Origin: a virus
Virus record (IMG/VR): IMGVR_UViG_3300010042_000001
Span: 1 to 63,118 of that record
Length of the DNA: 63,118 nt
Direction: 5' to 3' (one strand)
In this document: piece after piece, positions 8,949 to 49,448 of the stretch
How the letters are laid out: every line of letters starts with the position of its first letter
Numbering within the stretch: position 1 is the stretch's first letter
Notes under the pieces: generated by a model
Told to the model about the DNA's origin: nothing
The model's input: the letters and a program-made list of their open reading frames with translations, nothing else
Database searches by the model: none
Position numbers and translations under genes: made by a program

Positions 8949-9067
8949 TTAGCGTTCCAGACGCATTCGACGCATTTGGGGCACTTTTCCTAAACTCTTT
9001 CTATGCATACAGGGAACAATAGTAAAAGTGGGTCAAATGCGTCGAATGCGTCGAAAACTAACGCTAA
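8949..9067. promoter_or_regulatory. Inverted iteron-like region between regulator and primase
   Basis: Two tandem 9-mers (GACGCATTC 8960, GACGCATTT 8969) are mirrored by AAATGCGTC 9035 and GAATGCGTC 9044. They lie within 29-bp arms (8960-8988, 9024-9052) that match at 26 of 29 positions. Outside these, TTAGCGTT (8949-8956) mirrors AACGCTAA (9060-9067). The centre contains TATGCATA. The right end overlaps the primase stop codon. P4-type initiators bind short repeats near their gene, so this could be an origin or an operator. Confidence 0.6.
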
Positions 9068-11652
9068 ACATCATCGAAATCGTCAGGTGTAACGCTACGC
9101 AGGGCAATTCCCCTCCGACACCGCACATCCTTCGCGTCCTTCATCGCCGGAAAACGCTGCTCCAATTTCCGACCAAGAGCCGTGCTCGACTTCACAAAAT
9201 GGAGGTTTCCACGGTTTTTTGCGAACAATTCCCAGCTCGCCCACAGGTCCACGGAGGGCGTCAACGCTGACTGATCCGTTACCACACAGCATTCGTCCAG
9301 CCACTCGGCCAGCAGATCCATCTGACCACGGTAAGCCTCGCGAGCCTCCTTGATCGCCGGAGGCGGGGCCAGGCCCTCCTTCTGGTATTTCAGTCCGGCA
9401 CGGACGAACCTGGCCAGGATGCCCGGCATTTCTGCACGCAGCTTTTCCACCCGTTTCTCGTCCTTGGCCACGGTCTTGTCGGCCTCAAAGTTGCGCTCGA
9501 AGGGCAGCAGCACCAGGCGGCGCCAGATACCGTTGTCGGTGCCGCGCACGATGGGCTTGTGGTTCGTTGGCATGAACACCGTCCAGGTCGGGATGATCTC
9601 CAGGGACTTTTTGGCATGCACGCCGCGCGCCGTGATGGCATCACCACCCGTCATGCTTTTAATCGCCCCTTCGCGCAGCTCGCCGTTTTCGTCCGGCTCG
9701 TTCACATACACGAACCGCGCGCCACGCAGCCTGACCAGATCCTCGCGGGGCCCGCCGGCATTACCGCCAATGGCATCGCGCACAAAGCTGCCGGCCTCCG
9801 CGCTCTTGGCATAGGCGCCGAAGACCTCGCGCGCTACACCGTAAAGCGTTGACTTGCCATTGCTCCCATTGCCAAACGGGATGATCAGCACGTCGGCAGT
9901 CGGGTTGCCTTGCAGAGCGTAGCCCAGCGTGCGCAGAAAGAAATTCGCCATGGGCCCGTCGCCGAAAAAGCAGTCGAGCACAGTGCTGTCGAACACAGGG
10001 CACTTCGCCAGGGGGTCGTACTCGCAACCGGCCACCATGGTGATCCGCAGCTCGGGGTCGGGATCGAGCAGTGCGCCGGACCGCAGATCCACAATGCCGT
10101 TCTTCACGCCGAGCAGATAGCTGTGCTTGTCCAGCTCGCGCGCCGGAGTGGCGACCCGTGGATCGCTACACGCCAGCTTGATCATGTTGCTCACCATCTT
10201 CGCCTGTTGGCTGATCGAGCAGAATAAGAAGAACTCGCTCGGGTCGTCGTGATCGGCGGCCTCGGCCGGCAGGTTGCGCACCGTCTCCTTTGCCAGGTGC
10301 TCGATCTCTACGTCTACGGCGGGCCGCCAGTACACCCCAGTCCACATGTACCAACTGCCCTCTTCGGGCACATACATCAGGCCGTCGCCGTAGCGGTCCA
10401 GCATGCGCTCCGCGTTCCCGAACTCGGTAAGCGGGCGGCGCGACTGGACAGTGCTTTGCCGGCGGCCCAGCACCAGCTCGCGCGCCTGGCCAATGGGCAG
10501 GTTGTGGCCAGTCAGGGCCTTGTACCGCTCCTGGAAAAGGGTGACCGCGTTGGAGCGCAAGAGCTGGTCGTCCGGCAACAAGCTGCGCAGGTGCTCCAGG
10601 AACTTCGTTCCCCCGAGGGTGGGGAGGTCTGCTACCTCGGCGATGGCCGCTTTGATGGCGTCCACGCTCTCCAGCTTGTGGGCGTGCTCGGCGTCGCGCT
10701 TCTCCTGGCCAGCGATCTTGATCAGCCAGCGCAGCGTGGTGCTCGCGCCGGAGTACCGGCCGAACGACTCCCATTTGTAGTCGTACTGGTTGGGCTTGTC
10801 CTTGTCGCTGCGCGCCCCATAGTCGCGCCACAAGTCCAGCGCGTCGTCTTCGTGCTCGGTGCCCGCGAACTCGTGGTGGAGGGCCGCGCCGACCTGGACC
10901 CACGTGTCGTAGGAATCACCGTCGTTGGCCATGTGCGCCATCAGCTCGCGCACGTCCTCAATCGACATGTCCGTCTTGTTGGAGAGCAGGGCCAGGTCGT
11001 CCACCTCGCCGACCACGGCCAGCGCAGTGCCCGACTTGCCGACGATCTCCACGCCACTCGTGCCGCGCGCCAGACGGGCTACCTCCGCGAGCAAGGCGTT
11101 CACCTGGTCCTCGGTGATCTCGGGCAGATCGGCGGCCGGCATGTTGACCATGCCATCCATGAGATCGACCCACTCGTAGTCGTTGCCCGTGTCGGGATGC
11201 TGATGGTAGGCCACGAACTGCTGCCCGAGGCCCAGGATCTCCACCTGCTGCTCGTTCTTTTTGCCTGATGGTTTCAGTGGGTCGGTCGGATCGTAGAACT
11301 GCACGCTGGCGCCCTTGGCCCAGCCGCTCGACGCAGCACGGTACACCAGCATTACGCGCGGCGCGGCCCCCACCCGTTGGATCGTGCTGCCCAGGTGCTG
11401 CTCGCACCAGTCGATGACCTTGGGGCCGATGGTGGGGTGGCTGATATCGACGTCCACGCCGACGATGGGCCACTGCCCTTGGCCACACAGCACACCCACT
11501 CCGTGGTCCCGCCACTGGGTGAGGTCGTGGGCCGTGAGGCGGGCATTTTGCCAGCCCTTTATCTGGGGGAATTTCTTGCCGCGTGGTAGCGGCAGGACGA
11601 GATAACCGTTGTCAATGAGTTGCTTGCCATAGGTCTTGAGGTGGTCGGTCAT
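9064..11652 (-). CDS. Primase-polymerase / D5-type helicase
   Basis: 862 residues: the replicative primase-helicase. The N-terminal part (to about 200) looks like the bifunctional primase/polymerase fold, with the VGVDVDISHPT acidic motif. A PriCT_2-like segment follows (DDVRELMAH-type region near 230-320). The C-terminal half is a D5/P4-type SF3 ATPase with Walker A GNGSNGKST at 594-602 and the downstream FMPTNHKP and GIWRRLVLLPF motifs. It is transcribed leftward while most other replication genes are rightward. The last residues (DDFDDV) are acidic. Confidence 0.9.
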   Translation of the reverse strand: MTDHLKTYGKQLIDNGYLVLPLPRGKKFPQIKGWQNARLTAHDLTQWRDHGVGVLCGQGQWPIVGVDVDISHPTIGPKVIDWCEQHLGSTIQRVGAAPRVMLVYRAASSGWAKGASVQFYDPTDPLKPSGKKNEQQVEILGLGQQFVAYHQHPDTGNDYEWVDLMDGMVNMPAADLPEITEDQVNALLAEVARLARGTSGVEIVGKSGTALAVVGEVDDLALLSNKTDMSIEDVRELMAHMANDGDSYDTWVQVGAALHHEFAGTEHEDDALDLWRDYGARSDKDKPNQYDYKWESFGRYSGASTTLRWLIKIAGQEKRDAEHAHKLESVDAIKAAIAEVADLPTLGGTKFLEHLRSLLPDDQLLRSNAVTLFQERYKALTGHNLPIGQARELVLGRRQSTVQSRRPLTEFGNAERMLDRYGDGLMYVPEEGSWYMWTGVYWRPAVDVEIEHLAKETVRNLPAEAADHDDPSEFFLFCSISQQAKMVSNMIKLACSDPRVATPARELDKHSYLLGVKNGIVDLRSGALLDPDPELRITMVAGCEYDPLAKCPVFDSTVLDCFFGDGPMANFFLRTLGYALQGNPTADVLIIPFGNGSNGKSTLYGVAREVFGAYAKSAEAGSFVRDAIGGNAGGPREDLVRLRGARFVYVNEPDENGELREGAIKSMTGGDAITARGVHAKKSLEIIPTWTVFMPTNHKPIVRGTDNGIWRRLVLLPFERNFEADKTVAKDEKRVEKLRAEMPGILARFVRAGLKYQKEGLAPPPAIKEAREAYRGQMDLLAEWLDECCVVTDQSALTPSVDLWASWELFAKNRGNLHFVKSSTALGRKLEQRFPAMKDAKDVRCRRGIALRSVTPDDFDDV

Positions 11653-28274: not shown

Positions 28275-29714
28275 ATGCCCTCCTACCACGCAGAACTCTC
28301 CCCCTCCGGCGCCGACCGCTGGACCGATTGCACCGCATCACCTGGTGCGCAGCGCGGTATCCCCAACAAGAACAGCCTCGCCAGCATGGACGGCACCTGC
28401 GGCCACCAGATCCTGGCCGAGTGCCTAGAGTGGGGCCACGAGCCGCAGGCGTACCTGGGCGCTGTGCTGGTGTTCTGGTATCACGACAACAGCGATTCGC
28501 ACGGGGAAGACTGGTACGAGCAGTTCGCTGAAATGGCCAACACCGAGGATATAGTGGACCTGGGCCGCGTCACGGTCACCCAAGAGCTGGTAGATGCGGT
28601 GTACTCCGTCATGGATTTCGTCCAGGAGTTGCACCTACTGCGCGGCGGCATGCTGGAGGTCGAGCAGGCTGTGCCCATTGGCCACATCACCGGCGAGCTG
28701 CGGGACGGCACGATCATCGATACCGACGACGCAGACGACTACCCAGACCACGTGCTCGCCAGTGGCACCTCGGACGTCACCATTGTGGGCGACGACTGGA
28801 TCATTGTGGTAGACGCCAAGTTCGGCCGCAAACCCGTGTTCGCGCGCACCATCATCCAGCAGGCTTGCCACGGTATCGTGGACGGGGACTATCAGGAGGA
28901 AATCGCGCGGGCCAACCTGCAGATGGCTTTCTACGCCCTCGGCGCCGCGCGCAAGTACGCCCAATTCGGCGATTTCAAAACGGTGACGGTGATCATCGCC
29001 CAGCCGTTCGCCGGGGCCAACATGAGCGAATACACCTGCAGCATGGACGAGCTGCGGGCCCTGGAGGTGTGGCTGCGGGCCAAGGCTGTGGAGACGCGCG
29101 AGAACCCGCAATACCGGCCCAGCCCAGAGAACTGTTTCTACTGCCGGGCCGCCGGCAACTGCAAGGCCCAGACAGACATGGTGCTGGAGCTGGCCCTGGA
29201 GGGCTTCGACGACGAGACCACGGTGCGGCCATTGGAGCGCAGCCGCCGCAGTCTCGGCACCTTGTACCAGTTGCTCCCGTTGGTGGCGCGCTGGATCGAA
29301 ATGGTCGAGGTCCAGGTCAAGACCAAGCTCCTGGCCGGGGCCCGTGTGACGCGCGACGACGGTGTGGGTTACAAGCTGATTGCCGGTAAGATGACACCCC
29401 GCCGTTGGATGAACGAGGCGCAGGCCGAAATGGTCATGCAGTTGCTCGGCGTGCCCGACGAACGGATGTACAAGGTCGAAATGATCAGCCCGTCAGAGGC
29501 AGAGAAGCTGGCCCGCCGCCCACGGGTGGCCAAGGGCGAGACGAAGATACCCCCGATCATCACGAAAGAGGATTGGGAAGAATTACAGGAACAGATCACC
29601 ACTCCCGTGCCTGGCGCGCCGGTGATCGTCCTCGAAACAGACCCGAGGCCGCCGGTGGAATCTCCCACCGATGGTTTCGAGGATGTGCCGCTAGACGACG
29701 ATTCGATTGTCTAG
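28275..29714 (+). CDS. DUF2800 Cas4-like nuclease
   Basis: 479 residues. The family motifs are readable: LSPSGADRWTDCTAS at the start, a TSDVTIVGDDWIIVVDAKFG segment that is the D-x-K of a PD-(D/E)xK fold (residues about 170-184), and a C-terminal cysteine group (CFYCRAAGNC, about 286-296) as in Cas4/AddB iron-sulfur nucleases. It normally travels with the Enc34-type SSB, as here. Probable recombination exonuclease. The tail PLDDDSIV is acidic. Confidence 0.85.
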   Translation: MPSYHAELSPSGADRWTDCTASPGAQRGIPNKNSLASMDGTCGHQILAECLEWGHEPQAYLGAVLVFWYHDNSDSHGEDWYEQFAEMANTEDIVDLGRVTVTQELVDAVYSVMDFVQELHLLRGGMLEVEQAVPIGHITGELRDGTIIDTDDADDYPDHVLASGTSDVTIVGDDWIIVVDAKFGRKPVFARTIIQQACHGIVDGDYQEEIARANLQMAFYALGAARKYAQFGDFKTVTVIIAQPFAGANMSEYTCSMDELRALEVWLRAKAVETRENPQYRPSPENCFYCRAAGNCKAQTDMVLELALEGFDDETTVRPLERSRRSLGTLYQLLPLVARWIEMVEVQVKTKLLAGARVTRDDGVGYKLIAGKMTPRRWMNEAQAEMVMQLLGVPDERMYKVEMISPSEAEKLARRPRVAKGETKIPPIITKEDWEELQEQITTPVPGAPVIVLETDPRPPVESPTDGFEDVPLDDDSIV

Positions 29715-30561: not shown

Positions 30562-31221
30562 ATGCAATGCGGTCTGTGTTTGCAGGTCAAGCCTGCTACC
30601 GCGTTTTACGCGAGCAACAAAGCCAAGTGCAAGGAGTGCGTGAAAGCATCTGTGCGGGCGAATCGAGTCGCAAACATAGACCACTATCGCGCCTTTGATC
30701 GCAGACGCAGTAGCTTGCCGCACCGAGTCGAGGCACGGGCAAAGTACCAAGAAACACCAGAGTACGAAATCAGCCACAGTGCTGCGGCGCGGCGCTGGGC
30801 GGCAAACAACACGGTCCAACGGAAAGCGCAGATCAAACTCGGTAACGCAGTCCGCGACGGCAAGGTAACCCCCTGGCCCGGCTGCGCGGTCCCCTCCTGC
30901 TGTGAAGCACCAGAGGCCCACCACCCCGATTACAGCCGGCCACTCGATGTGGTATGGCTGTGCCCCAAGCATCACGCAGCGGCCCACTCACTGGTGAAGC
31001 CGCACAACATGAAGAAAGTGAGTAACGCAATGGCAACAGCATCGATCAAAGTAGGGCGCAAGGTGAGCATCACCAAGTCGCCCAGTCGGTTTACCGAGGG
31101 CAAGGTCACCGAGATCCTGGACACCCCCCGTGGCCAGTGGTATGTGGTGGACGTGAACACCGACCGCAAGAAACCGGCGAACCCTCAGAAGTACCGTCTG
31201 GGCGACCTCGCAGCCCGGTAA
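30562..31221 (+). CDS. HNH-type zinc protein with an extra C-terminal domain
   Basis: 219 residues. The N-terminal part has CGLC...CKEC knuckles; the middle has PGCAVPSCCEAPEAHHPDYS followed by CPKHHAAAH, an HNH/zinc-nuclease pattern of phages. After about residue 155 a separate beta-rich domain begins (ASIKVGRKVSITKSPSRF). An internal ATG at 31030 precedes it, so it might also be translated alone. Looks like a fusion of two neighbouring genes. Confidence 0.75.
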   Translation: MQCGLCLQVKPATAFYASNKAKCKECVKASVRANRVANIDHYRAFDRRRSSLPHRVEARAKYQETPEYEISHSAAARRWAANNTVQRKAQIKLGNAVRDGKVTPWPGCAVPSCCEAPEAHHPDYSRPLDVVWLCPKHHAAAHSLVKPHNMKKVSNAMATASIKVGRKVSITKSPSRFTEGKVTEILDTPRGQWYVVDVNTDRKKPANPQKYRLGDLAAR

Positions 31222-31238: not shown

Positions 31239-31264
31239 AAACCGTCTTTCGAGGCGGTTTTCTT
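31239..31264 (+). terminator. Terminator before the membrane/TAXI cassette
   Basis: AAACCGTC (31239-31246) pairs with GGCGGTTT (31253-31260), with a TTTCGA loop and T-rich tail. It ends the replication transcript; the next promoter begins at 31265, so the following cassette is insulated. Confidence 0.8.
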
Positions 31265-31298
31265 TTGACAAGTTATTTCGCATTCGCTAAACTCTGTA
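31265..31298 (+). promoter_or_regulatory. Operator-controlled promoter of the membrane/TAXI cassette
   Basis: TTGACA (31265-31270), 17-bp spacer, TAAACT (31288-31293). The operator TTTCGCATTCGCTAAA (31276-31291) covers the spacer and part of the -10. Bases 31271-31298 are identical to 38875-38902, a 28-bp exact repeat in front of another operon. Confidence 0.85.
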
Positions 31299-31325
31299 TC
31301 TCAATCAACTGAACTGGAGGTTCGC

Positions 31326-32060
31326 ATGAACAGTGTCGATATCCGCCGCCCCAAGCTGGCTGCGGCTTTGAAGTGGGGCATTGGCCTGGTGGCGGTCTTC
31401 GTCGCCGGCCTGGCGGCCATCACCATCGTGAAGGGCATTCTCGCCCTGTCGTTGCTCGGGCTCGCGGCTGCAGCGGTCATCTATGGCTCCCCGTGGGCCG
31501 CGATGAAGCTGGCCAACATGTCCCTCTCGGCCCAGAAACACGAGGCGCGCGAAAACCCCATCGAGACGCGCCAGAACATGGCCGTGCAGATGCGGCAGCA
31601 ACTGGCCAGTGGCGAAGAGGCGTTGACCCTGTTCGCTGGCGCCGTGGCGGATTTTGCCGACCAGGTGAAGGCCCTCAAGCGCGACCAACCGGACGACGCG
31701 GCCGACTTCGACGAGCAGCTTGCCAAGATGCGTGAACTGCTCTCGTTCCGTGAGAAAGCCTGGCAGAACGCCAAGGCCACAGTGGTCGAATTCGAGAAGG
31801 CAACTGGCCGCGCAGCCAACAAATGGAAAGTCGCGCAGGTTGCAGCTCGGGTCAACAAACTCTCCGGTGCGGCTATCGGCACGGAAATGGACAAGCTCCT
31901 GGCCGCCGAGTCGCTGGACTCCGTGCAGTCGGCCATGAACCGCGCATTCGCTGACATGGACCGTGCTATCCGGGCCGAGAGCGTGCCGCAGCTCGCCGCC
32001 CAGCCCACCCACACCATCGACGTGAACGCCGTCGAGATCCGCGAAAAGGTGCGCCTGTGA
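31326..32060 (+). CDS. Membrane protein with a coiled-coil cytoplasmic domain
   Basis: 244 residues; GGAGG 5 bases before the ATG. Two hydrophobic segments near residues 15-60 (WGIGLVAVFVAGLAAITIV and ILALSLLGLAAAAVIYG) are followed by about 180 residues of charged helix. The layout recalls PspA-like or scaffold proteins at the membrane, but without sequence proof. First gene of a three-gene cassette with its own operator-promoter. Confidence 0.7.
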   Translation: MNSVDIRRPKLAAALKWGIGLVAVFVAGLAAITIVKGILALSLLGLAAAAVIYGSPWAAMKLANMSLSAQKHEARENPIETRQNMAVQMRQQLASGEEALTLFAGAVADFADQVKALKRDQPDDAADFDEQLAKMRELLSFREKAWQNAKATVVEFEKATGRAANKWKVAQVAARVNKLSGAAIGTEMDKLLAAESLDSVQSAMNRAFADMDRAIRAESVPQLAAQPTHTIDVNAVEIREKVRL

Positions 32061-32209
32061 TCTACAAAATCATCCTCTCCATTCTGCTGGTCATCGTGCT
32101 CGGTCTGGGCTTGCTCAAGACCATCGCCGACGACGGGCGGCCCACACCCTCTGTGTCGCCGGCCGGCAGCGCCGATGACGCATCCCGCAAGTCGCTGCGC
32201 ATCCCCTGA
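32057..32209 (+). CDS. 50-residue membrane protein
   Basis: GTG start overlapping the preceding stop (GTGA). One hydrophobic span (KIILSILLVIVLGLGLLK) and a polar Pro/Ser/Ala-rich tail. Translationally coupled middle gene of the cassette. Function unknown. Confidence 0.65.
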   Translation: MIYKIILSILLVIVLGLGLLKTIADDGRPTPSVSPAGSADDASRKSLRIP

Positions 32210-32236
32210 TCCCTCCACTCCTGAAAGGAAACCATC

Positions 32237-33163
32237 GTGAAAAAGTACCTCGTCGCATTCGCACTGGCCATCGGCGCCATGCTCTCCGCTTCTGCCCAAC
32301 AAGTCACGGTCTCGACCGGTGACGGCGCCGGCAGCACCTACGTGGCCATGCTCGGCAACATCGCGAAGTGGTGCGGAAACGCCGTCTCGCTCGTGCCCAT
32401 GCCGTCCAGCGGCTCCATCGAGAACCTGGACCGCCTGGTGGGCAACAAGGTCAACGCCGCTTTCGTCCAGTCGGACATGTTGTACATGCGTGCCCGCACC
32501 GAAGACCTGGGCGATATCAAAACGCTGCTGGCGTTGCACCCCGAGCAACTGCACTTCGTCGTGCCGCCCACCTCCGGGATTAAGACCGGCGGCGTGGTTG
32601 GCATCGGTGGCAAGGCTGTGGTCTTCTCGGACTTAGCCGACCTCCACGGCTACAGCATCGGCGCCTCGGGCGGTTCCGTTGAAACACTCAAGATCGTTCG
32701 CCTGCAGAGCGAAGTGAATTTCTCGGTGCTGGAGTACCCGGATGCCAAGGCCGTGAAGGAGGGCTTGGCCCGTGGTGAGGTCCAGGCCGCCCTGTTCGTC
32801 GGCGGCGCGCCCCTGCCCTCCGTGGAGTCCCTGCCGGCCGGCTATCGCATGCTGTCGGTCTCCGAAGCCCTGCAGAGCAAGATGAAGGGTGTGTACAAGC
32901 CGGCGCGCGGCAACTACCGCAACCTGGGCGCCACCGGCGTGCCCACGGTGTCCACCGACGCACTGCTCGTGACCCGCACGTACACGACGCCGAAGATGGT
33001 CCACGGTCTGGGCACGCTGCGCGCCTGCGTGATCGACAACCTGGCCGAGATCAAGGAGACCTCCGGCACACACCCCGCATGGCGTAACGTGAAGGCCGAC
33101 AACAAGGGCCCGTGGAGCTGGTACGAGCTGCCCGCCCCGCAACCTGGTACGGTGAAAAAGTAA
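32237..33163 (+). CDS. TAXI-family periplasmic solute-binding protein
   Basis: 308 residues. A typical signal peptide (MKKYLVAFALAIGAMLSASA, residues 1-20) precedes STGDGAGSTYVAMLGNIAKW, the TAXI-family signature of TRAP-type solute receptors. The later VPMPSSGSIENLDRLVGNKV and DLADLHGYSIGASGGSV follow the family order. Bacterial TAXI proteins bind small acids or amino acids for a TRAP permease; no permease is present here. AGGAAACC precedes the GTG/ATG region. Unusual cargo for a phage. Confidence 0.8.
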   Translation: MKKYLVAFALAIGAMLSASAQQVTVSTGDGAGSTYVAMLGNIAKWCGNAVSLVPMPSSGSIENLDRLVGNKVNAAFVQSDMLYMRARTEDLGDIKTLLALHPEQLHFVVPPTSGIKTGGVVGIGGKAVVFSDLADLHGYSIGASGGSVETLKIVRLQSEVNFSVLEYPDAKAVKEGLARGEVQAALFVGGAPLPSVESLPAGYRMLSVSEALQSKMKGVYKPARGNYRNLGATGVPTVSTDALLVTRTYTTPKMVHGLGTLRACVIDNLAEIKETSGTHPAWRNVKADNKGPWSWYELPAPQPGTVKK

Positions 33164-33166
33164 GCC

Positions 33167-33574
33167 ATGGCCGCGCACCCCCACGCGGCCTTTATGGCCG
33201 AATTCGCGAAGGACGCAGCTACCACCGAAAGGCCGTGGCTGCTCTGGCAAGCAAAAGGCGCACGAGGCATCTGGTACACACTGCGTGTTGCGCCGACCTG
33301 GATGCCTGACATGCAGTACCGTCGCAAGGTTGCCTGCGTCAAGATCAACGGGGAAGAGATCCCGATGCCCGAACGCCATGCCCCAACCATGGGTTCTCAC
33401 TACTACACACCCAACCTCTCGGGCGAAGGGACCAACCGCTGCACCGAGCTGCGTTGGCACGCCTCTGATTTGGACTGCTTGTTACTGCGGCGGGGCTTGG
33501 TTCATGCATCGCACCAGGCGGCCACGCAGCACGCAATGGCCCTCACGGCGGCCACCCGAATCGCACCAGACTGA
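33167..33574 (+). CDS. Unknown protein
   Basis: 135 residues. RRKVACVKINGEEIPMPERH and a polar body; no membrane segment. It starts 3 bases after the TAXI gene, so it belongs to the same transcript. The 223 bp after it are non-coding, with a weak repeat of TTGGCACCT. Function unknown. Confidence 0.6.
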   Translation: MAAHPHAAFMAEFAKDAATTERPWLLWQAKGARGIWYTLRVAPTWMPDMQYRRKVACVKINGEEIPMPERHAPTMGSHYYTPNLSGEGTNRCTELRWHASDLDCLLLRRGLVHASHQAATQHAMALTAATRIAPD

Positions 33575-33797: not shown

Positions 33798-35915
33798 ATG
33801 AAACTTTGGCTTGATCGCGAGACCTTCGGCGAAGATGACTTGACCGAAGTCGGCGCCTACAAATACGCCGAGACAGCCGAGGATATCCTGGTCTCCTACG
33901 CCATCGACGATGGTCCGGTAAAAGACTGGGACGTTACCGCCGAACCGATACCGGCAGACCTCCGGCACGCGATGGAGCACGCCGAAGAGGTGTGGGCCCA
34001 CAACGCCACGTTCGACCGCGCCGTACAAGACGGCCCAAAGCAGAGCCACCTCCCACACATCGATCTTCGCCGCTGGCGCTGCAGCATGGCCATGGCGTTG
34101 TCGCACGCGCTGCCGGCCAGCCTCGCCGATCTGGGCATGGCCTTGAACCTGCCTGCCGAGCTGCAGAAGCTCGACACTGGCAAGAAACTGATCAACCTCT
34201 TTTGCAAGCCGCAGCCCAGCAACCGCAAGTTGCGCCGGTGCACTCGGCTGACACACCCCGTCGAATGGGAGAAGTTCCGCCAGTACGCGCGCAACGATAT
34301 CGCCGCCATGCGAGAGAGCGTTCGGCAGATGCCGGTCTTCAACTGGGACGCGGCCTGTATCGAGGAATACCACCACGACCAGGAGATCAACCAGCGCGGT
34401 TTCTACGCCGACCTGGAACTTACCGCCGCTGGACAGCGGGCCTCGGAGACGGAAAAGGTCCGCATCCATGCCCAGGTGGCGCAGATCCTCGGTTGCAGCA
34501 TCCGGGTGAGCCAGCGGGACAAGTTCCGTGACCTATTGAACGAGCGCTATGGGCTCGATCTGGAGGACACGAAAAAGGACACATTCCTCCACGTCCTCAA
34601 GAATTCCAACCTCCACCCAGAGTGCGCCGCGCTGCTCAATCTCGCGCTGCAGGCCAACAAGACCTCGACGGCCAAGTACGCCAAGCTGCACCCCGCCATC
34701 CAGCACGACCGCCGGTTCCGTGGGGGCCTGCAGTTCTGTGGCGCGAGCCGCACGCGGCGCCTGGCCGGCCGGATGTTCCAGGCCCAGAACCTGCCCAGCC
34801 GTGGCTTGCCCAAAGCGGACAAGGTGGAGCTGTACATCGACACGCTGAAAGAGGACGCGCACCACCTCTTTTTCGAGGACAAGGAACTGATGTGGTACGG
34901 GGCGGCTGCGCTGCGCGGCGTGATCATTGCGCCCCCTGGCAAAAAGCTCGTGGCCTGCGACTTGTCCAACATCGAAGGCCGCATGCTGGCATGGGTGTCC
35001 GGCGAGCAGTGGAAACTCGATGCGTTCCGCGCCTATGACGCCGGCACCGGGCCCGACCTCTACAACATCACCGCTGTGAACATCATCGGCGGCGACCCCT
35101 GGAAAGTCGAGAAGCACAACCGCAACGCCTTCGGCAAGGTGCCTGATCTGGCCTCGGGCTACATGGGCGGCGTGTCCGGCTACCAGACCTTCGCCAAGGC
35201 GTACAACACGCGCATGGCCGACCACTGGGGCACGATCCAAAAGCAGATCGCCCCGGCCCACATCAGCAAGGCGCGCGACAACCTGGAGAAGTTCGGCCGC
35301 CGGCAGATGGACGAAATGCAGATCAGCGAGATCGAGTGGCTGGCCAGTGAGACCTGCAAGGTCGCTTGGCGCGCCCGCCATCCGGCCACCGTGGCGTTCT
35401 GGTATGCGCTGCAGGACGCGGCGATGAACGCGATCAACGAGTGGGGCAAGACCTTCCGCGCCGGCAAGCTGGTCAAAGTGAAGTGCGTCACGGTCAATGG
35501 CCACCGCTGGCTGATCGTCCGCTTGCCCTCGGGTCGGTATCTCACCTACTACGACCCCAAGCTCTTGCCTGGCTCGTTCGGCCGCAAGCAGATCACCTAC
35601 ATGGGCGACGCAGCGGAAAAGGCCGGCGACAAGCGCGGTTGGATTCGGGTCTACACCCATGGCGGCAAGATGACCGGTAACGTGTGCCAGAGCACGGCGC
35701 GCGATATCCTGGTGCCTGCCCTGCAGAAAGCTGAAACGATGGGCTACCTGCCTGTGATCAGCGTCCACGACGAGGGTGTTTGCGAGGTGCCTGACCACCC
35801 CAGTTTCAGCGTCGAGGGCTTGTCGGCGCTGCTCACCGAGGAACGCGACTGGACCAAGGGCCTGCCCCTGGCGGCCAGCGGCTTCGAGGGCCCCCGGTAC
35901 AAGAAAGAGGACTGA
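33798..35915 (+). CDS. DNA polymerase, family A
   Basis: 705 residues. The N-terminus has a proofreading exonuclease DxE (WLDRETFG, D6 and E8). The polymerase domain follows: motif A CDLSNIEGRMLAW (near 386-398) and motif C VHDEGV (near 655-660). Length and layout fit phage Pol I-like enzymes that replicate the genome. GAGAGAAA is a weak start site; the ATG at 33798 is the first in frame. Confidence 0.92.
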   Translation: MKLWLDRETFGEDDLTEVGAYKYAETAEDILVSYAIDDGPVKDWDVTAEPIPADLRHAMEHAEEVWAHNATFDRAVQDGPKQSHLPHIDLRRWRCSMAMALSHALPASLADLGMALNLPAELQKLDTGKKLINLFCKPQPSNRKLRRCTRLTHPVEWEKFRQYARNDIAAMRESVRQMPVFNWDAACIEEYHHDQEINQRGFYADLELTAAGQRASETEKVRIHAQVAQILGCSIRVSQRDKFRDLLNERYGLDLEDTKKDTFLHVLKNSNLHPECAALLNLALQANKTSTAKYAKLHPAIQHDRRFRGGLQFCGASRTRRLAGRMFQAQNLPSRGLPKADKVELYIDTLKEDAHHLFFEDKELMWYGAAALRGVIIAPPGKKLVACDLSNIEGRMLAWVSGEQWKLDAFRAYDAGTGPDLYNITAVNIIGGDPWKVEKHNRNAFGKVPDLASGYMGGVSGYQTFAKAYNTRMADHWGTIQKQIAPAHISKARDNLEKFGRRQMDEMQISEIEWLASETCKVAWRARHPATVAFWYALQDAAMNAINEWGKTFRAGKLVKVKCVTVNGHRWLIVRLPSGRYLTYYDPKLLPGSFGRKQITYMGDAAEKAGDKRGWIRVYTHGGKMTGNVCQSTARDILVPALQKAETMGYLPVISVHDEGVCEVPDHPSFSVEGLSALLTEERDWTKGLPLAASGFEGPRYKKED

Positions 35916-35917
35916 CC

Positions 35918-36175
35918 ATGGGCGACGAAGCCGACCGACTGATCGATCTTTTCTGGAAAGGCATCGACGTGCGCGCCGGTCGTGGTTTTGCCCGCCGGCC
36001 AAGCTGGCAAGAGCACCCAGACCCTAAGTGCAGCTACTGCGGCCAGAGCGAGGGGCTGCGCTGGAAAGAAACCGAGAACGGCTGGCGGCTCCATGAAAAG
36101 GAGCACCCCGGCAATCGGTATGTACAACACGTCTGCCCGACGACGGCAGACGGCTTTGAGGATGAATCCCTGTGA
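35918..36175 (+). CDS. Small zinc-binding protein
   Basis: 85 residues. CSYCGQSEG near the middle and a CP at the end could form a metal site. It lies between the polymerase and an exonuclease in the replication unit. Overlaps the next gene by 4 bases (GTGA). Confidence 0.65.
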   Translation: MGDEADRLIDLFWKGIDVRAGRGFARRPSWQEHPDPKCSYCGQSEGLRWKETENGWRLHEKEHPGNRYVQHVCPTTADGFEDESL

Positions 36176-36732
36176 CTGAATTCCATGACCTGATGATCGA
36201 CGTCGAGAGCGCAGGCAAGGGCGCAACGGGCGCGCTCATGTCCATCGGCGCTGTCTTTTTCAACTACACCAACGAGTGCGTGCTGGGCCCCACCTTCAAC
36301 AAAGTGATCCACCTGGCCACGTCCGTTCGCGACGGCGGAACCATGGACCCGAGCACGTTCCTGTGGTGGATGCGGCAAAGCCAAGAGGCACGGTTTGCCG
36401 TGGCCTTCGGCGGCGGTGAGGTCCGCGAGGTGCTGGCTGAGTTCACCAAATTCATCGAAGAGACCAGTACGGTCAAGGACGTCCGGCCATGGGGCAACTC
36501 CCCGAAGTTCGACATGCAGAAGATCGAACACGCCTACAAAGGCGCGCGCTTGCCGGTCCCCTGGCACTTTACCAACGAGCGGTGTTTCCGCACCGTGCGA
36601 TGCCTGCATGCCCATGTCGTTTACGACCCAAAGGAGAAGGGCACAGGCAATCACAACGCCCTGGACGATGCTATCTTTCAGGCGAAACACCTGTTCAAAA
36701 TCCGCAACTACCGAAAGGCACCCAATGCGTGA
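36172..36732 (+). CDS. DEDD-family 3'-5' exonuclease
   Basis: 186 residues. MIDVES (D10, E12) begins the exonuclease fold, WGNSPKFDMQ is the second motif, and HNALDDAIFQAKHL the third (DEDDh). This is the Rv2179c-like branch often found in phages. GTG start overlaps the preceding stop. Role: trimming of nucleic-acid ends in replication or repair. Confidence 0.8.
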   Translation: MTEFHDLMIDVESAGKGATGALMSIGAVFFNYTNECVLGPTFNKVIHLATSVRDGGTMDPSTFLWWMRQSQEARFAVAFGGGEVREVLAEFTKFIEETSTVKDVRPWGNSPKFDMQKIEHAYKGARLPVPWHFTNERCFRTVRCLHAHVVYDPKEKGTGNHNALDDAIFQAKHLFKIRNYRKAPNA

Positions 36733-36994: not shown

Positions 36995-37425
36995 GCACAG
37001 AGCAGGCACTGGCTGTCCTGCGCGCACGCACGGCGGCAAAGGAAAACGAGCTGGTGGCGCACATGCGCAAGCAGCCGAACGGTATGACCGTGCGGGAGAT
37101 CGCGGACCACATGCACCTGGGCATCGAGCGCGCGAAAAAGTACGGGCGACAACTGCTGGCCCAGAAGCGGATCTACATCGCCGAGTGGCGACCGTGTGAT
37201 GGCACGCTCGGCCAGCGAGCCCAGGTCTTCCGGGTCGGCAACCTGCCCAGCGTGAAGCGGCCCAAGGCAAAGCCAAGGGTTGTTGTCCAGCGGCAAAGCC
37301 GAGCCCGCCGTCGCAAAGCGGACCCGGATCAACACGCAGCGCGTCTTGACCGCGCAAACACCAGACGTCGTAAACCACCCAAGCCGGACATGCTCCTGGC
37401 TGCTTTCTTTGGACCCACCGCATGA
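36991..37425 (+). CDS. Winged-helix DNA-binding protein
   Basis: 144 residues from a GTG start. MTVREIADHMHLGIERAKKY is a helix-turn-helix with a wing-like tail, and the C-terminus is arginine- and lysine-rich. It sits between VRR-NUC and SNF2 helicase genes; it may load them or regulate this unit. Confidence 0.65.
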   Translation: MSTEQALAVLRARTAAKENELVAHMRKQPNGMTVREIADHMHLGIERAKKYGRQLLAQKRIYIAEWRPCDGTLGQRAQVFRVGNLPSVKRPKAKPRVVVQRQSRARRRKADPDQHAARLDRANTRRRKPPKPDMLLAAFFGPTA

Positions 37426-38876
37426 GCCGCATTTTCGTCCCGCGCGAGTACCAGCACCTGATGCTGGATTTCGGCATGGAGCACGAGCGCTGCAACTGGT
37501 TTGTAGGCATGGGCTTGGGCAAGACCAGTAGCGGCGTGGAGCTGTTCGACCGCCTACGCCTGCTGGGTGAAGTCCAGCGGCTGCTGGTGCTGGCGCCCAA
37601 GCGCGTGGCCGAGTCATCCTGGCCAGGGGAGGTCACGAAGTGGGGTGAGTCGTTCGGCCACCTCAAGGTCGCCGCAGCCATCGGCACGCCAGAAAAGCGC
37701 CTGGCCGCGCTGCGCAGCACACCGGACATTCTCACAATCAACTACGACAACATCGAGTGGCTGATGGAGCAGTACGGCGAGCACTGGCCATTCGACATGG
37801 TGATAGCGGACGAGAGCACGCGATTGAAGGGCTTGCGGATCAGCTACCAACAGCGCAGGAAAAAGGACGGCACGCTCGGCAAGGAATTCATGCAGGGTCA
37901 AGGTGCCTCGCGCGCCAAGGCCCTTGCCGGCATAGCGCACAAGAAAGTCCGCCGGTGGGTCAACCTGACCGGTAGCCCAGCGCCGAACGGCCTGGTGGAC
38001 CTGTGGGGCCAGCAGTGGTTTATCGACCGAGGCGAGGGCCTCGGCAACTCGTTCGACCACTTCAAGAAACGCTGGTTCACGCAGAAGATCGGCAGCAGCC
38101 GCGAGCAGGAGCGCCTGGAGCCCAAGGCGCACGCGCTGCGCGAGATCCGGCGCGAAGTGAAGAAACACAGCATTGTGGTGGATGCGCGCGACTGGTTCGA
38201 TATCAAGGCGCCCATCGTCTCCCACCAGATGATCACGCTGCCGCCGGCCGCCCGCAGGCAGTACCGGGAAATGGAAAAGGAATTTTTCACCTGGGTGGGC
38301 GAGCACCCGCTGGAGGTCTTCGCCGCCGGCCCCAAGATGAATAAGTGCCTGCAGTTGGCCAGTGGCTCTGTGCTCTACAACCACGAGGGTGATTGGGCCC
38401 CTGTCCACAAAGAGAAGCTGGAGGCCCTGCGCAGCATCGTCGAGGAAACGAACGGCGAGCCGCTGCTGGTTGCCTACCAGTACCGCGCTGATCTGGAGCG
38501 AATCTTGAAAGAGTTCCCGCAGGCCCGCAGCCTGCAGAAGAACAGCGACCGCACGATCAAGGCATTCCAGGCCGGCGAGATCCCCATGCTCGTCGTCCAT
38601 CCAGCCAGCGCTGGCCACGGGTTGGATCTGCAGCATAGCTGCCACATCATGGTGGACTACTCCAGCGGCTGGAACCTAGAGCTGGACGAGCAGGTGATCG
38701 AGCGCATCGGGCCCACCCGGCAAGCGCAGATCGGCCGCAACGTGGCGGTGTTCCGTTACCGCATCGTGGCTCAGGACACACTCGAAGAGACGTTCATCCT
38801 GCCGCTGCTGGAGCAGAAGGCCGGATTCCAAGAGGCCCTGAAAAATGCAATGAAACGCCAACGAGCCCTTGCGTAG
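37422..38876 (+). CDS. SNF2-type helicase
   Basis: 484 residues. Walker A GMGLGKTS (about 29-36), DEAH-box-like VIADESTRLKG, the VNLTGSPAPNG motif III, and the C-terminal helicase motifs (HPASAGHGLDLQ, IERIGPTRQ). Short phage SNF2 proteins of this kind remodel DNA-protein complexes or replication forks. Ends at TAG 38876, inside the next promoter. Confidence 0.9.
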   Translation: MSRIFVPREYQHLMLDFGMEHERCNWFVGMGLGKTSSGVELFDRLRLLGEVQRLLVLAPKRVAESSWPGEVTKWGESFGHLKVAAAIGTPEKRLAALRSTPDILTINYDNIEWLMEQYGEHWPFDMVIADESTRLKGLRISYQQRRKKDGTLGKEFMQGQGASRAKALAGIAHKKVRRWVNLTGSPAPNGLVDLWGQQWFIDRGEGLGNSFDHFKKRWFTQKIGSSREQERLEPKAHALREIRREVKKHSIVVDARDWFDIKAPIVSHQMITLPPAARRQYREMEKEFFTWVGEHPLEVFAAGPKMNKCLQLASGSVLYNHEGDWAPVHKEKLEALRSIVEETNGEPLLVAYQYRADLERILKEFPQARSLQKNSDRTIKAFQAGEIPMLVVHPASAGHGLDLQHSCHIMVDYSSGWNLELDEQVIERIGPTRQAQIGRNVAVFRYRIVAQDTLEETFILPLLEQKAGFQEALKNAMKRQRALA

Positions 38877-45796: not shown

Positions 45797-47695
45797 TTAT
45801 GGGGTGGTTGGCTCGCGGTCCACGCTGCCGCGACCGATAACCTCGTAGTCGTAATCAATGCCGCCGGGGGGCCCCATCTGCACCGTGCGGATCTGTGCGA
45901 ACGCGGCCATGGCGCCCTCGAAGTGGATGAACTGCACGTTGCCCGGAATCCAGCCAGCGCCCCAGCCGTTCTCGCGGATCGTGAAGTATGGGGTAGTTCC
46001 GCCTGGCACCAGGGGGTTGATCGGCGAGAAATCCGCGTTGATCGTACCCGAACCGATGTTGCCCACGAACTCGCCGATGCAGTCGAACGAGCTGCTGCTG
46101 GTAAAGCGCAAGGCAAACCGCTGGGTCAGCGTGCCTGCGTTGTTGACCTCAATGGGGTACAGGGCCGCGTTGTAGTTCGCCAGGGCGGGGTCTCCAACGA
46201 TGCCGTTGGCCCACTGGAGGTTCCAGGTCTGCTGATCCCACATGGCCGACACGCGCGCTTTCATGTCGCCGATCAGGAGCGCGCTGCTGACCACAGAGCC
46301 GATTGGGAAGTCGTGCGCAAGCTGGCCGACGATCTTGATCGTGCCGTCGATTTGCACGTCAGCAATGCGGACCATCTGCTCTTTGCGGAACTCGATGCGC
46401 GCCGGCTGATCCCAGCCCGTCACGTCCACGATGGTGACAAAGCCGGTATCCAGGTTGACCGTGTAGCCGCTGGTGATTACCACGTCGTCGTCGCCGAAGA
46501 TCCGCACGCGCGAAAGGCGGTCCGTGCCGGTGTCGATGGTCTGCCCGTTGGAGTACGTGGCTTCGGACATGGTGGTCACGTTACCGAGTACCATCTGGCC
46601 GCCATTGCGAAATATCGGCACTCGGCCATCGGCAGGCAAACGCACCGGGTCCAGGCCCAGGATCTCAGCCTCCACGGGGAGGTAGAAGTAGGACACGCTG
46701 TTGTAGCGCAGCGTGGTAGGGTCCACCGGCCAGGGGCGCCAGATTTTCAGCGCCTCGACCGCACCGACGTCGGCCGCGTTGTACCACCATTCCAGTTTCT
46801 GCGCGGCAGTGAGCGACGAGTCGAGCACGAAATCCCCGAACTGCAAGTTGACCACGCCGGTGAGAAAATCCACCTTGCCCAGCAGGTGCGTGCCCACGAG
46901 GTCTCCATCGTTGTCGGCCGTGGCTGTGAGCGCGTTGCCTTGGGTGTCGGTGAGCACCATCACGAAGCCGCCAGGGGCCAGAGGGGCGCTCTGCGTACGC
47001 ATCATGATGGTGGCCGTCTTCCACTTCTGGCGCGTGGTCCACAGGCTGTCCAGGGTGAACGAGTCAGGGCTACCGGAAACAACCCAGTCGTACATTTGCG
47101 CGATGCCGGATGCGTAGTCAATGTTCCCCGAGGCGATACCGGCCACCGAGTCCGTGCGGTCGCGGTAGATGACGCCCTCGAAGTCGCGGTAGACATGACC
47201 CATCCAGGTGAATTGCACGCTGCCAGGGACGATGTAATCCGAGGTCAGAGGGCACAGGTCGATGCTGAGAATGTCGGGTGTGAAGGTCTGTGTGTGCGCC
47301 GTCTCCGGTTCGACACCCGTGTTGTAGAAAACGTAAATGCTGCCACCGGCCAGAGTCTCGCTCTCGATCTTGGCCGAGCTGTAAACCCCACCTTTTTGGC
47401 TGTCGCTGCCGCCACCGCCAGAGCTGCCGCCCCCTGTGAGTTCCGCGAAGATCGCGGCGTCCTCGTAGTCGCTGTTGTAGCTGTCCGTTTTCGCGTCGTT
47501 CTGCACCACGCGCACAGAGAGCGTCTTGGCGACGTAGTTCACCACACCCATCCAGGGGCCGAAGGTGCCGGCCCCGTTGTCCAGCAGCTCGTGGCCCACC
47601 AGGTCTTGTGTGCGGCTTTCCGTGCTCATGGCCGTGTTGTGGCGGGCGATGTTACCGAGCGTGCTGTACGCCTGGTTTGTGATCGTGTATGGCAT
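45797..47695 (-). CDS. Tail structural protein
   Basis: 632 residues, beta-rich and acidic, with a Gly/Ser-rich linker near residue 90 (GGGSSGGGGSD). No membrane segment or enzyme motif. Located after the distal-tail genes, so probably a tail-tip or fibre-associated protein. Confidence 0.65.
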   Translation of the reverse strand: MPYTITNQAYSTLGNIARHNTAMSTESRTQDLVGHELLDNGAGTFGPWMGVVNYVAKTLSVRVVQNDAKTDSYNSDYEDAAIFAELTGGGSSGGGGSDSQKGGVYSSAKIESETLAGGSIYVFYNTGVEPETAHTQTFTPDILSIDLCPLTSDYIVPGSVQFTWMGHVYRDFEGVIYRDRTDSVAGIASGNIDYASGIAQMYDWVVSGSPDSFTLDSLWTTRQKWKTATIMMRTQSAPLAPGGFVMVLTDTQGNALTATADNDGDLVGTHLLGKVDFLTGVVNLQFGDFVLDSSLTAAQKLEWWYNAADVGAVEALKIWRPWPVDPTTLRYNSVSYFYLPVEAEILGLDPVRLPADGRVPIFRNGGQMVLGNVTTMSEATYSNGQTIDTGTDRLSRVRIFGDDDVVITSGYTVNLDTGFVTIVDVTGWDQPARIEFRKEQMVRIADVQIDGTIKIVGQLAHDFPIGSVVSSALLIGDMKARVSAMWDQQTWNLQWANGIVGDPALANYNAALYPIEVNNAGTLTQRFALRFTSSSSFDCIGEFVGNIGSGTINADFSPINPLVPGGTTPYFTIRENGWGAGWIPGNVQFIHFEGAMAAFAQIRTVQMGPPGGIDYDYEVIGRGSVDREPTTP

Positions 47696-47711: not shown

Positions 47712-49448
47712 TCAGTAATCGGCGTGCAGGGCCGTGCCGCCAGGGAAAGTGTTGCTCAGGAAATTCCAACCACTGTTGGTTGTCGTAGCGGGCGGTGGTT
47801 CAGAAACAGTAGACGTTGTGATCTCGTCCGGCGTAAAGACCCCCGACGATCCGTGGTAAGCCGGGTTTTTCTGGTTGTTCGTGCCCGCTGTGCTGCCTGC
47901 TGTGTTGTTCGTGAACCGGGACGTGACCCAACGGACGGCCACTGTGCCAGGGGTCGCTTGCTCAGCGAGGCTGACGCTCACAAAGCCCCCGCTGTCGGGC
48001 GTGAGGCCCGAGAAGGTTTCGATCTCTGCCTCGGCCCAGTCGAACTCAATGTTGAACTCCGCACCTGGGTCGGGGAAAGCCGTGGGCCGAATGCGGAACC
48101 GGCCCGAGTGGTAGATGATCGTGCCCGTGGCATCGCCGGTAAAACCCCCCGTGCCGTTGTCCGTCGCGGTCTTGGTAACACCACCCGACAACCAGGTAAC
48201 GACCAGGGAGCCGATGATCACAAAATCGTGATCGAGAACGATCTCAAACTCCGGCTTGCGGAAACCAGATACCGAGCCCGAGCGGTTGGTGTACGCCACC
48301 TTTTCACCCCACTGCAGAATGATTTCACTGCCGACGTCCGGCATTTCCTGGAGCGTGATCGAGACGCTACCGGTGGTGTAGACCACTTGGCCCGCGCCTG
48401 CGCCAGTGAACGCGCCGTTGCCATCGTCCCAAACGGTGTACCAGTTGCCCAGTGCCATGTAGCTGATCGCCACCGTGCCGGGGGCCGGGAAGGGACGCAG
48501 CATGTCGGTATACGAGCTACGGCGGTTCTCCTGTCCGATCTTGATGCGATGGGTGTGGGGCGACTGGCCCACCTCGACTTGACGCGGCGCCGTGGCGAGC
48601 ACCAGATTACGTACCGAGGCAGGCCGTTGGTCCAGTGCTACCGACTCCGTGCGTGCACTGGGCACGAGTTGGCTGTACACCGATTCGACTTTGATAGCCG
48701 CCTCGCCAATCTCACCGGCCACGGTCAACCGCGTGGCACCAAAATACTGTGCTGCGTCGGCCACGGTTGTGTCCCGCACGATGGTCTTGGTTACGTCCCG
48801 CGTGTAGATTCTGCTCGGTGGGCTACCGGGGAAATTCTGCGTCAAGCGGTCGCTCAGGTCACACACGATCACATCGGCTTGATAGTCCACAAAGCCGCCA
48901 CTCACGGACATGGTGAACGTGCGGGTCTCGGTCACTGCGCGTGTGATGCGGACGTACTGCCTGCGTTCTGTGCCGGTCCCCTCTTGGTAGATCAGGCACA
49001 ACGTGCGACCGATAGCCGGTGCAGCAGACCCGACCCGCTGGAACAACTGGATTTGCGCCATGCCCACGACGTGATTTTCCAGCAGGTAACCGCTCCATTC
49101 CGACGCCTGGATCAGGTAGCTTTCGATGGCGTTCGCGATCTCCGTGCGCCTCGCAAAATCGCTGACCTTGGCAAGTGTGATCGCCACGTTGTCGTCGTTT
49201 GGCGGCTTGGACACGATGATGTTCGCGCCCATGAAAGTGGCTGTGTTGTTCGTGCGAACAGCGAGGAAAGTCTGGCGGATCGACACGTCACCGTTGGATC
49301 GGTCCAGCTCGCTGATATCGTTGAAAACACCGTTGCTGCCGCCATCCGGGATGATGTTGCCCGAGGGCCCGCCACCGCCATTGTCCTCGTCGTCCATGAC
49401 CACGGACGCCAGCAGGATCACATCACCTTGCAAGATTGGGTCTGCCAT
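47712..49448 (-). CDS. Tail structural protein
   Basis: 578 residues, beta-rich with repeated VSISLQEM and VVYTTGSVSITLQ-like segments and an N-terminal helix. Shares style with the 45797 protein, possibly after duplication. Placed in the tail-tip cluster by position. Confidence 0.65.
   Translation of the reverse strand: MADPILQGDVILLASVVMDDEDNGGGGPSGNIIPDGGSNGVFNDISELDRSNGDVSIRQTFLAVRTNNTATFMGANIIVSKPPNDDNVAITLAKVSDFARRTEIANAIESYLIQASEWSGYLLENHVVGMAQIQLFQRVGSAAPAIGRTLCLIYQEGTGTERRQYVRITRAVTETRTFTMSVSGGFVDYQADVIVCDLSDRLTQNFPGSPPSRIYTRDVTKTIVRDTTVADAAQYFGATRLTVAGEIGEAAIKVESVYSQLVPSARTESVALDQRPASVRNLVLATAPRQVEVGQSPHTHRIKIGQENRRSSYTDMLRPFPAPGTVAISYMALGNWYTVWDDGNGAFTGAGAGQVVYTTGSVSITLQEMPDVGSEIILQWGEKVAYTNRSGSVSGFRKPEFEIVLDHDFVIIGSLVVTWLSGGVTKTATDNGTGGFTGDATGTIIYHSGRFRIRPTAFPDPGAEFNIEFDWAEAEIETFSGLTPDSGGFVSVSLAEQATPGTVAVRWVTSRFTNNTAGSTAGTNNQKNPAYHGSSGVFTPDEITTSTVSEPPPATTTNSGWNFLSNTFPGGTALHADY

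What the first reader, a model, noticed from the sequence alone, without database searches (positions are those of the whole stretch)
31265..33574. Operator-controlled membrane/TAXI cassette in a phage
A two-span coiled-coil membrane protein, a tiny membrane protein and a secreted TAXI solute-binding protein (plus one soluble gene) sit between a terminator and the polymerase gene, with their own promoter. TAXI receptors normally serve a TRAP permease, which is absent. The set may block superinfection, sense a nutrient, or modify host transport.
Basis: partly seen in the sequence, partly recalled or inferred. Interest (0 to 1): 0.8.

Follow-up and report, generated by a model that had tools for sequence, protein, structure and literature searches.

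The report
Mobile-element periplasmic TAXI sensor cassette
A three-gene set (a membrane protein with a long coiled tail, a tiny membrane anchor and a secreted nutrient-binding protein) recurs in the same order in many unrelated bacterial viruses and in two large plasmids, without the transporter such binding proteins normally serve, so it looks like an undescribed sensor of the space outside the inner membrane rather than a nutrient pump.

Summary
The trio is real and reaches far beyond this phage. Genes A (31326-32060), B (32057-32209) and C (32237-33163) recur as A-B-C in 14 distinct lineages: Vibrio and Achromobacter phages, IMG/VR contigs and two large plasmids. Gene D and an 'operator' are not part of it. 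C has the TAXI fold, keeps the glutamate-contacting residues of known TAXI proteins, and carries a Cys pair found only in cassette members. No permease-like ORF is encoded in the window or around any cassette examined; ordinary TAXI loci show one. In one contig B+C are replaced by a single anchored SBP_bac_3-LysM protein; in two others C is replaced by an unrelated secreted protein. The nearest cellular TAXI relatives found sit next to single-pass kinases or AAA ATPases that end, after a Pro-rich tail, in a conserved peptide; B has the same TM-linker-peptide plan. Best reading: C is a periplasmic amino-acid-type receptor docked on B, and A is the cytoplasmic output. Shown: conservation, swap, absent permease, retained ligand residues. 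Inferred: docking, signalling, and the final effect (exclusion or envelope control). No description was found in the papers searched.

The parts
31239..31260 (+). terminator-like hairpin upstream of the cassette (9 bp stem, TTCG loop, T-rich tail)
   Evidence: also the only inverted repeat there
31265..31293 (+). sigma-70-like promoter TTGACA-N17-TAAACT of the cassette
   Evidence: 10 of 12, best in 27-44 kb. Consensus match only
31326..32060 (+). gene A, 244 aa: TM hairpin (about residues 18-55), juxtamembrane motif N64...EA.ENPIETRQ, cytoplasmic helical hairpin (78-120 / 122-180)
   Evidence: phrog_27316 5.6e-24
32057..32209 (+). gene B, 50 aa: single TM, N-in/C-out by charge, Ser/Pro linker, conserved C-terminal peptide DDASRKSLRIP
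32237..33163 (+). gene C, 308 aa: secreted TAXI-type solute-binding protein; ligand residues Y35, S60, Q78, H101, E103; Cys46/Cys264; C-terminal HPAW...W extension
33167..33574 (+). gene D, 135 aa, phage hypothetical: NOT part of the cassette

Best explanation
A-B-C is a periplasmic solute-sensing module carried by phages and large plasmids. C is exported, binds a small ligand (most likely an amino acid of the glutamate kind) between its two lobes, and docks on the short conserved peptide at the end of B's periplasmic tail. B tethers C to the inner membrane beside A. Ligand occupancy is passed to A, a TM-hairpin protein whose cytoplasmic helical hairpin is the output, perhaps by assembling on the inner face of the membrane. 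In the infected or plasmid-bearing cell this would adjust the inner membrane or envelope, for instance to resist a second invader or keep the cell fit. Shown: conservation of the set, TAXI fold, retained ligand residues, absent permease, exchange of the binding domain. Inferred: docking, direction of signal, ligand identity, output.
For: Same three genes in order in 14 lineages incl. two plasmids. Contigs found by A alone: 3 of 6 have B and TAXI C, one has a TM-SBP_bac_3-LysM fusion in place of B+C (Pfam 3.6e-9 and 3.5e-10), two have B and another secreted protein. C fold best matches glutamate TAXI proteins; residues equivalent to VcGluP Y45, S75, Q93, H123, E125 (PMC11574862) kept. No permease-like ORF in window or 14 other cassette loci, found in all TRAP-linked controls. 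Cellular C relatives are next to kinase-TM-tail or AAA-TM-tail proteins ending in DPxxVIDWLLK, pattern seen again in a newly opened genome. B's last 11 residues 54% identical against 16% in its linker, 0 of 20000 shuffles. Precedent for SBP to membrane protein to cytoplasm signalling: GlnH-GlnX-PknG (PMC6069109).
Against: No complex, ligand or phenotype was measured. The B end peptide is conserved only in one subgroup and is not alike in sequence to the cellular peptide. A has no known signalling domain. The SBP_bac_3 swap is a single case, and in two contigs the secreted protein is of unknown kind. pAZI09 C has lost H and E of the site, L043 C the H. The cellular relatives are only about 25% identical.
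Confidence: 0.5

Rival explanations
1. Accessory uptake: C captures glutamate-like nutrients and hands them to a host permease (TAXI-TRAP QM protein or GltS), with B as tether, boosting supply during infection.
For: C keeps the TAXI ligand residues; a TAXI protein working with GltS instead of TRAP is known from Bordetella (PMC12344293); some cassettes lie beside metabolic genes.
Against: No permease in the cassette; A and B are the constant parts and resemble no transporter subunit; the same set works across different hosts; exchange of the SBP type with A kept.
Confidence: 0.15
2. Exclusion device in which A and B seal the inner membrane against incoming DNA and C acts as a periplasmic plug or decoy, without a ligand role.
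For: Found in both phages and conjugative or large plasmids, which share the need to exclude competitors; small membrane plus periplasmic parts are usual in exclusion systems (general knowledge).
Against: Ligand-contacting residues are kept, which a mere plug would not need; no match to defence models beyond noise.
Confidence: 0.15
3. Membrane guard: A is a TM-anchored ESCRT-III/PspA-like protein that polymerises to repair or protect the inner membrane; C and B report envelope state.
For: Fold searches rank CdvB2/CdvB first in PDB, and Snf7 first after A's own family in the viral library, VIPP1 also listed.
Against: PDB E-values 0.1 or worse, viral 0.035, model pLDDT 67.8; profile comparison with PspA no better than the reversed control; coiled coils match many things.
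Confidence: 0.12
4. Ligand-gated channel or lysis timer: A oligomers form a pore controlled by C.
For: Conserved Pro/Gly in the A hairpin; weak matches of a few members to Phage_holin_3_6, E 0.016-0.1.
Against: Present on plasmids without Terminase_6N, sits in the replication cluster, holin match far below cut-off.
Confidence: 0.08

Closest known systems
TAXI-family TRAP solute-binding proteins (VcGluP 8s4j/9ibo, TtGluBP 1us4/8u79, 4ddd)
   Same: Fold, export signal, ligand-contacting residues
   Different: No TRAP permease, Cys46/Cys264 pair, HPxW...W C-terminal extension, fixed partners A and B
GlnH-GlnX-PknG amino-acid sensing (Mycobacterium, Corynebacterium)
   Same: A periplasmic binding protein whose occupancy is proposed to be passed through a membrane protein to the cytoplasm (PMC6069109)
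   Different: Other SBP family, no kinase, tiny B, helical-hairpin A; chromosomal there, mobile here
Orphan TAXI plus kinase-TM-tail or AAA-TM-tail pairs in Rokubacteria and Desulfobacterota (seen in this work)
   Same: TAXI with HPxW...W extension next to a single-pass protein with Pro-rich tail ending in a conserved peptide
   Different: Cytoplasmic domain is a kinase or AAA ATPase on the same chain; peptide DPxxVIDWLLK differs from B's DDxxMKSLKIE
TAXI-GltS system of Bordetella pertussis
   Same: TAXI protein without a TRAP permease (PMC12344293)
   Different: There a GltS transporter is encoded beside it; none here
PspA/VIPP1/ESCRT-III proteins
   Same: Helical-hairpin shape of A's soluble part in fold searches
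   Different: No sequence relation detected; TM hairpin added

Membership tests
TAXI-type solute-binding protein (C) | Profile match above curated cut-off | tested here: inconclusive
   Pfam NMT1_3 43.8 bits, cut-off 27: met. NCBIfam TRAP_TAXI 57.2 bits, cut-off 84.35: not met
TAXI-type solute-binding protein (C) | Two-lobed TAXI fold | tested here: met
   Seven best PDB matches are TAXI proteins, E 6e-15 to 2e-13, TM 0.63-0.68
TAXI-type solute-binding protein (C) | Ligand-contacting residues of VcGluP | tested here: met
   Y35, S60, Q78, H101, E103 (PMC11574862)
TAXI-TRAP transporter | Fused multi-TM permease encoded with the binding protein | tested here: not met
   None in window or 14 other cassette loci; present in controls
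PspA/IM30 (A) | Sequence-profile match | tested here: not met
   No Pfam match; hhalign score 15.7 against 17.0 for reversed control
ESCRT-III superfamily (A) | ESCRT-III fold | tested here: inconclusive
   Top-ranked but E 0.1 (PDB) and 0.035 (viral); model pLDDT 67.8
GlnH-GlnX-PknG type sensor system | Cytoplasmic Ser/Thr kinase PknG in the set | tested here: not met
   No kinase among A-D
GlnH-GlnX-PknG type sensor system | Ligand-dependent signalling across the membrane | not testable with these tools
   needs biochemistry
Phage holin (A) | Holin profile above cut-off | tested here: not met
   Phage_holin_3_6 E 0.016-0.1 in a few members only, below cut-off
Known anti-phage defence system | PADLOC model match | tested here: not met
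   Only coiled-coil noise, E 0.003 or worse

The most novel reading that the evidence does not exclude
A previously undescribed class of transmembrane sensor carried by phages and plasmids: an exchangeable periplasmic binding protein, docked on a minimal single-pass tail, controls a TM-anchored helical-hairpin effector (possibly ESCRT-III/PspA-like) that remodels or guards the host inner membrane in response to a periplasmic amino-acid or cell-wall-derived signal.
Probability: 0.3. Interest if true: 0.9.

Novelty: new variant of a known kind. Interest (0 to 1): 0.72.

Why it matters
A dedicated ligand-binding receptor facing the periplasm would mean that phages and plasmids read small molecules there. 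It would recast phage TAXI genes, now annotated as transport genes, as sensors, and the cellular relatives beside single-pass kinases and AAA proteins suggest an overlooked group of TAXI-based sensors in bacteria. Isolated phages with known hosts carry the set (Achromobacter phage Motura, Vibrio phages RYC and Va1), so ligand, docking and phenotype are directly testable.

Tried and rejected
Nucleotide search of the window against phages: no match. C alone, and two Vibrio-type C queries, against viral contigs: nothing; mixed profiles worked. A further A profile gave only contigs already held. Gene D as fourth member: rejected. Operator: none. PspA membership of A: rejected on sequence. XpaC (PF10112), the usual TelA companion, as relative or neighbour: not found. 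The plasmids as hidden phages: no Terminase_6N in either; other terminase families were not tested. Defence models: none. Ralstonia phage RP12, whose protein is the closest structural relative of A, could not be fetched under the accession tried, so its context is unknown. MT835818 (L019), labelled a phage, looks like an ordinary bacterial TAXI-TRAP locus and served only as a control. Chromosomes were searched for C only through one short pattern, so chromosomal copies of the full trio cannot be excluded. The AAA-linked type was found in 2 of 148 genomes of one phylum, one of them the query's own. Paper searches gave no description of the trio, but those searches were narrow and subscription papers are mostly not held.

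Full report
1. What is there. The window is a 63,118-base virus record. The minus strand carries large terminase (258-2429), small terminase (2432-2908), primase (9067-11652), a tail protein, tape measure, major tail protein, head protease and portal (60646-62259). The plus strand carries a replication cluster: DUF2800 exonuclease (28275-29714), Enc34-type ssDNA-binding protein, endonuclease (30562-31221), the cassette, PolA (33798-35915), exonuclease (36172-36732) and a helicase (37422-38876). The cassette follows a terminator-like hairpin and a good promoter-like site. A and B overlap by four bases; C starts 27 bases after B.

2. The set recurs. tblastn with C found seven phage records, all under 40% identity. 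In Achromobacter phage Motura (gp278-277-276), Vibrio phage RYC (VCPH_00047-46-45) and Vibrio phage Va1, C is preceded by a small single-TM gene and a 250-residue A; the small gene of Va1 is unannotated but present. RYC A as query found the same Vibrio phages plus K354, K406 and K408, which also have C; K354 shows the three genes in a row. The C profile in IMG/VR gave L005 to L008 (and Motura again as L009), each with A and B upstream; L005 and L006 have small extra ORFs between B and C. A plasmid search gave Vibrio coralliilyticus p380 and Azospira sp. I09 pAZI09 with the same three genes. With L040, L043 and L044 below this makes 14 distinct lineages: window, L005, L006, L007, L008, Motura, Va1 group, RYC, K354 group, p380, pAZI09, L040, L043, L044. 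L008 is cut inside C. Flanking genes differ, so the trio is the unit.

3. The unbiased test. A scan by A alone brought in six contigs that C had not found. L040, L043 and L044 carry B and TAXI C (hmmsearch E 4.5e-92, 3.6e-55, 9.3e-97). L041 has after A one 372-residue protein: an N-terminal TM like B, an SBP_bac_3 domain and a LysM domain. L039 and L042 have A, a 39-43-residue TM protein and related 348-residue secreted proteins of no known family. So A and the anchor stay while the secreted part can change; where it changes to a recognisable family it is again a solute-binding protein, now covalently tethered. That fusion supports both the N-in/C-out topology of B and a physical B-C link. It is one case.

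4. C is a binding protein with its site kept. The C model (mean pLDDT 77.6) has known TAXI proteins as its seven best PDB matches. By the printed profile alignment to 8s4j, VcGluP residues Y45, S75, Q93, H123 and E125, which contact glutamate directly or through water (PMC11574862), correspond to Y35, S60, Q78, H101 and E103. Across 13 cassette C proteins Y and Q never vary; S is G in two, H differs in two and E in one. These residues are also common in TAXI proteins at large, so they show a kept site, not a special ligand. A Cys pair, 46 and 264, is in 13 of 13 cassette proteins and 0 of 14 other TAXI proteins. The cassette proteins form one group in 97% of bootstrap trees, with modest branch support (85/58); p380 C lies with Va1 C (98/99), which points to exchange between phage and plasmid.

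5. No transporter. Of five annotated plasmid TAXI loci outside the cassette, four have a TRAP permease next door (not). ORFs with at least eight hydrophobic segments: none in the whole window or in 14 other cassette loci, present in every TRAP-linked control.

6. Cellular relatives point to sensing. The best chromosomal matches found for the C profile (about 25% identity) are TAXI proteins of Rokubacteria and Desulfobacterota. They share an HPxW...W C-terminal extension with most cassette members. In L010 and L014 the next, overlapping gene is a Ser/Thr kinase (Pkinase 1.6e-32 and 1e-33), then one TM, a Pro-rich tail and DPxxVIDWLLK; L011 shows the start of the same kinase. In L012, L015 and L016 the next gene is an AAA protein (AAA_22) with a tail and a similar final peptide; in L012 the TM falls below my hydropathy threshold. 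In a newly opened genome, G112, the same was found: AAA protein, TM, long Pro-rich tail, PDPSKVIDWLLKKKGE. B repeats this plan in 50 residues: TM, Ser/Pro linker, conserved last 11 residues (mean identity 54% among six members against 16% in the preceding 11; 0 of 20000 shuffles). In the other members the tail ends differently. The step from 'same plan' to 'docking site for C' is inference.

7. Gene A. Its most conserved part is the TM hairpin and a motif just inside the membrane (N...EA..NPIETLQ). The soluble part is modelled as a long helical hairpin plus short helices (moderate confidence, six-sequence alignment). Fold searches put ESCRT-III proteins first (CdvB2 and CdvB; Snf7 in the viral library after A's own family), with VIPP1 lower, all with weak E-values, and sequence profiles do not support PspA. 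It is a lead only.

8. Mechanism and rivals. I commit to a sensor: ligand closes C, C sits on B, A answers in the cytoplasm (0.5). The output is open; presence on phages and plasmids favours competition with other invaders or protection of the host envelope over lysis or virion functions. Rivals: accessory transport (0.15), ligand-free exclusion (0.15), membrane guard (0.12), gated channel or lysis timer (0.08).

9. Known or new. C is a divergent TAXI-type protein; the system is not a TAXI-TRAP transporter. It would work like SBP-based signalling such as GlnH-GlnX-PknG (PMC6069109) but is not a member: other SBP family, no kinase. No account of the trio was found in the library; two recent TAXI papers contain no word starting 'phage'. 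I rate it a new variant of a known kind, with a fair chance of being more.

Noticed in passing
L010 5968-8455, L014 5938-8287, L012 5995-8715, L015 1376-3656, L060: Orphan TAXI proteins beside single-pass Ser/Thr kinases (Rokubacteria) or AAA ATPases (Desulfobacterota) that end in a conserved periplasmic peptide DPxxVIDWLLK: possibly an undescribed cellular sensor family.
   Followed up: partly
L041 6764-7882: B and C replaced by one TM-anchored SBP_bac_3 plus LysM protein directly after A.
   Followed up: partly
L039 6963-8009 and L042 6841-7887: A and B followed by a 348-residue secreted protein of no known family, then a second secreted protein (195 and 184 aa).
   Followed up: no
L018 5001-5837 (Pseudaeromonas phage KLEP7): A phage TAXI-like gene without A, B or a permease; very divergent, lacks the C-terminal extension and the Cys pair.
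   Followed up: no
L035 21831-23782 (plasmid pAZI09): Two toxic-anion-resistance (TelA) genes about 4 kb upstream of the cassette.
   Followed up: partly
L002 6980-9805; L004 7413-10390; L044 8548-9321: Polyamine genes (Motura) and PRPP/NAD salvage genes (RYC; a PRPP-synthase-like ORF in L044, judged by eye) directly or closely downstream of the cassette.
   Followed up: no
L019 (MT835818.1): Record labelled bacteriophage carries a TAXI gene beside an 18-segment membrane protein; it looks like bacterial rather than phage DNA.
   Followed up: no
window 45797-47695 and 47712-49448: Two neighbouring minus-strand genes match the C-terminal and N-terminal parts of one 1200-position phage family (phrog_6128), as if one long gene were split.
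   Followed up: no
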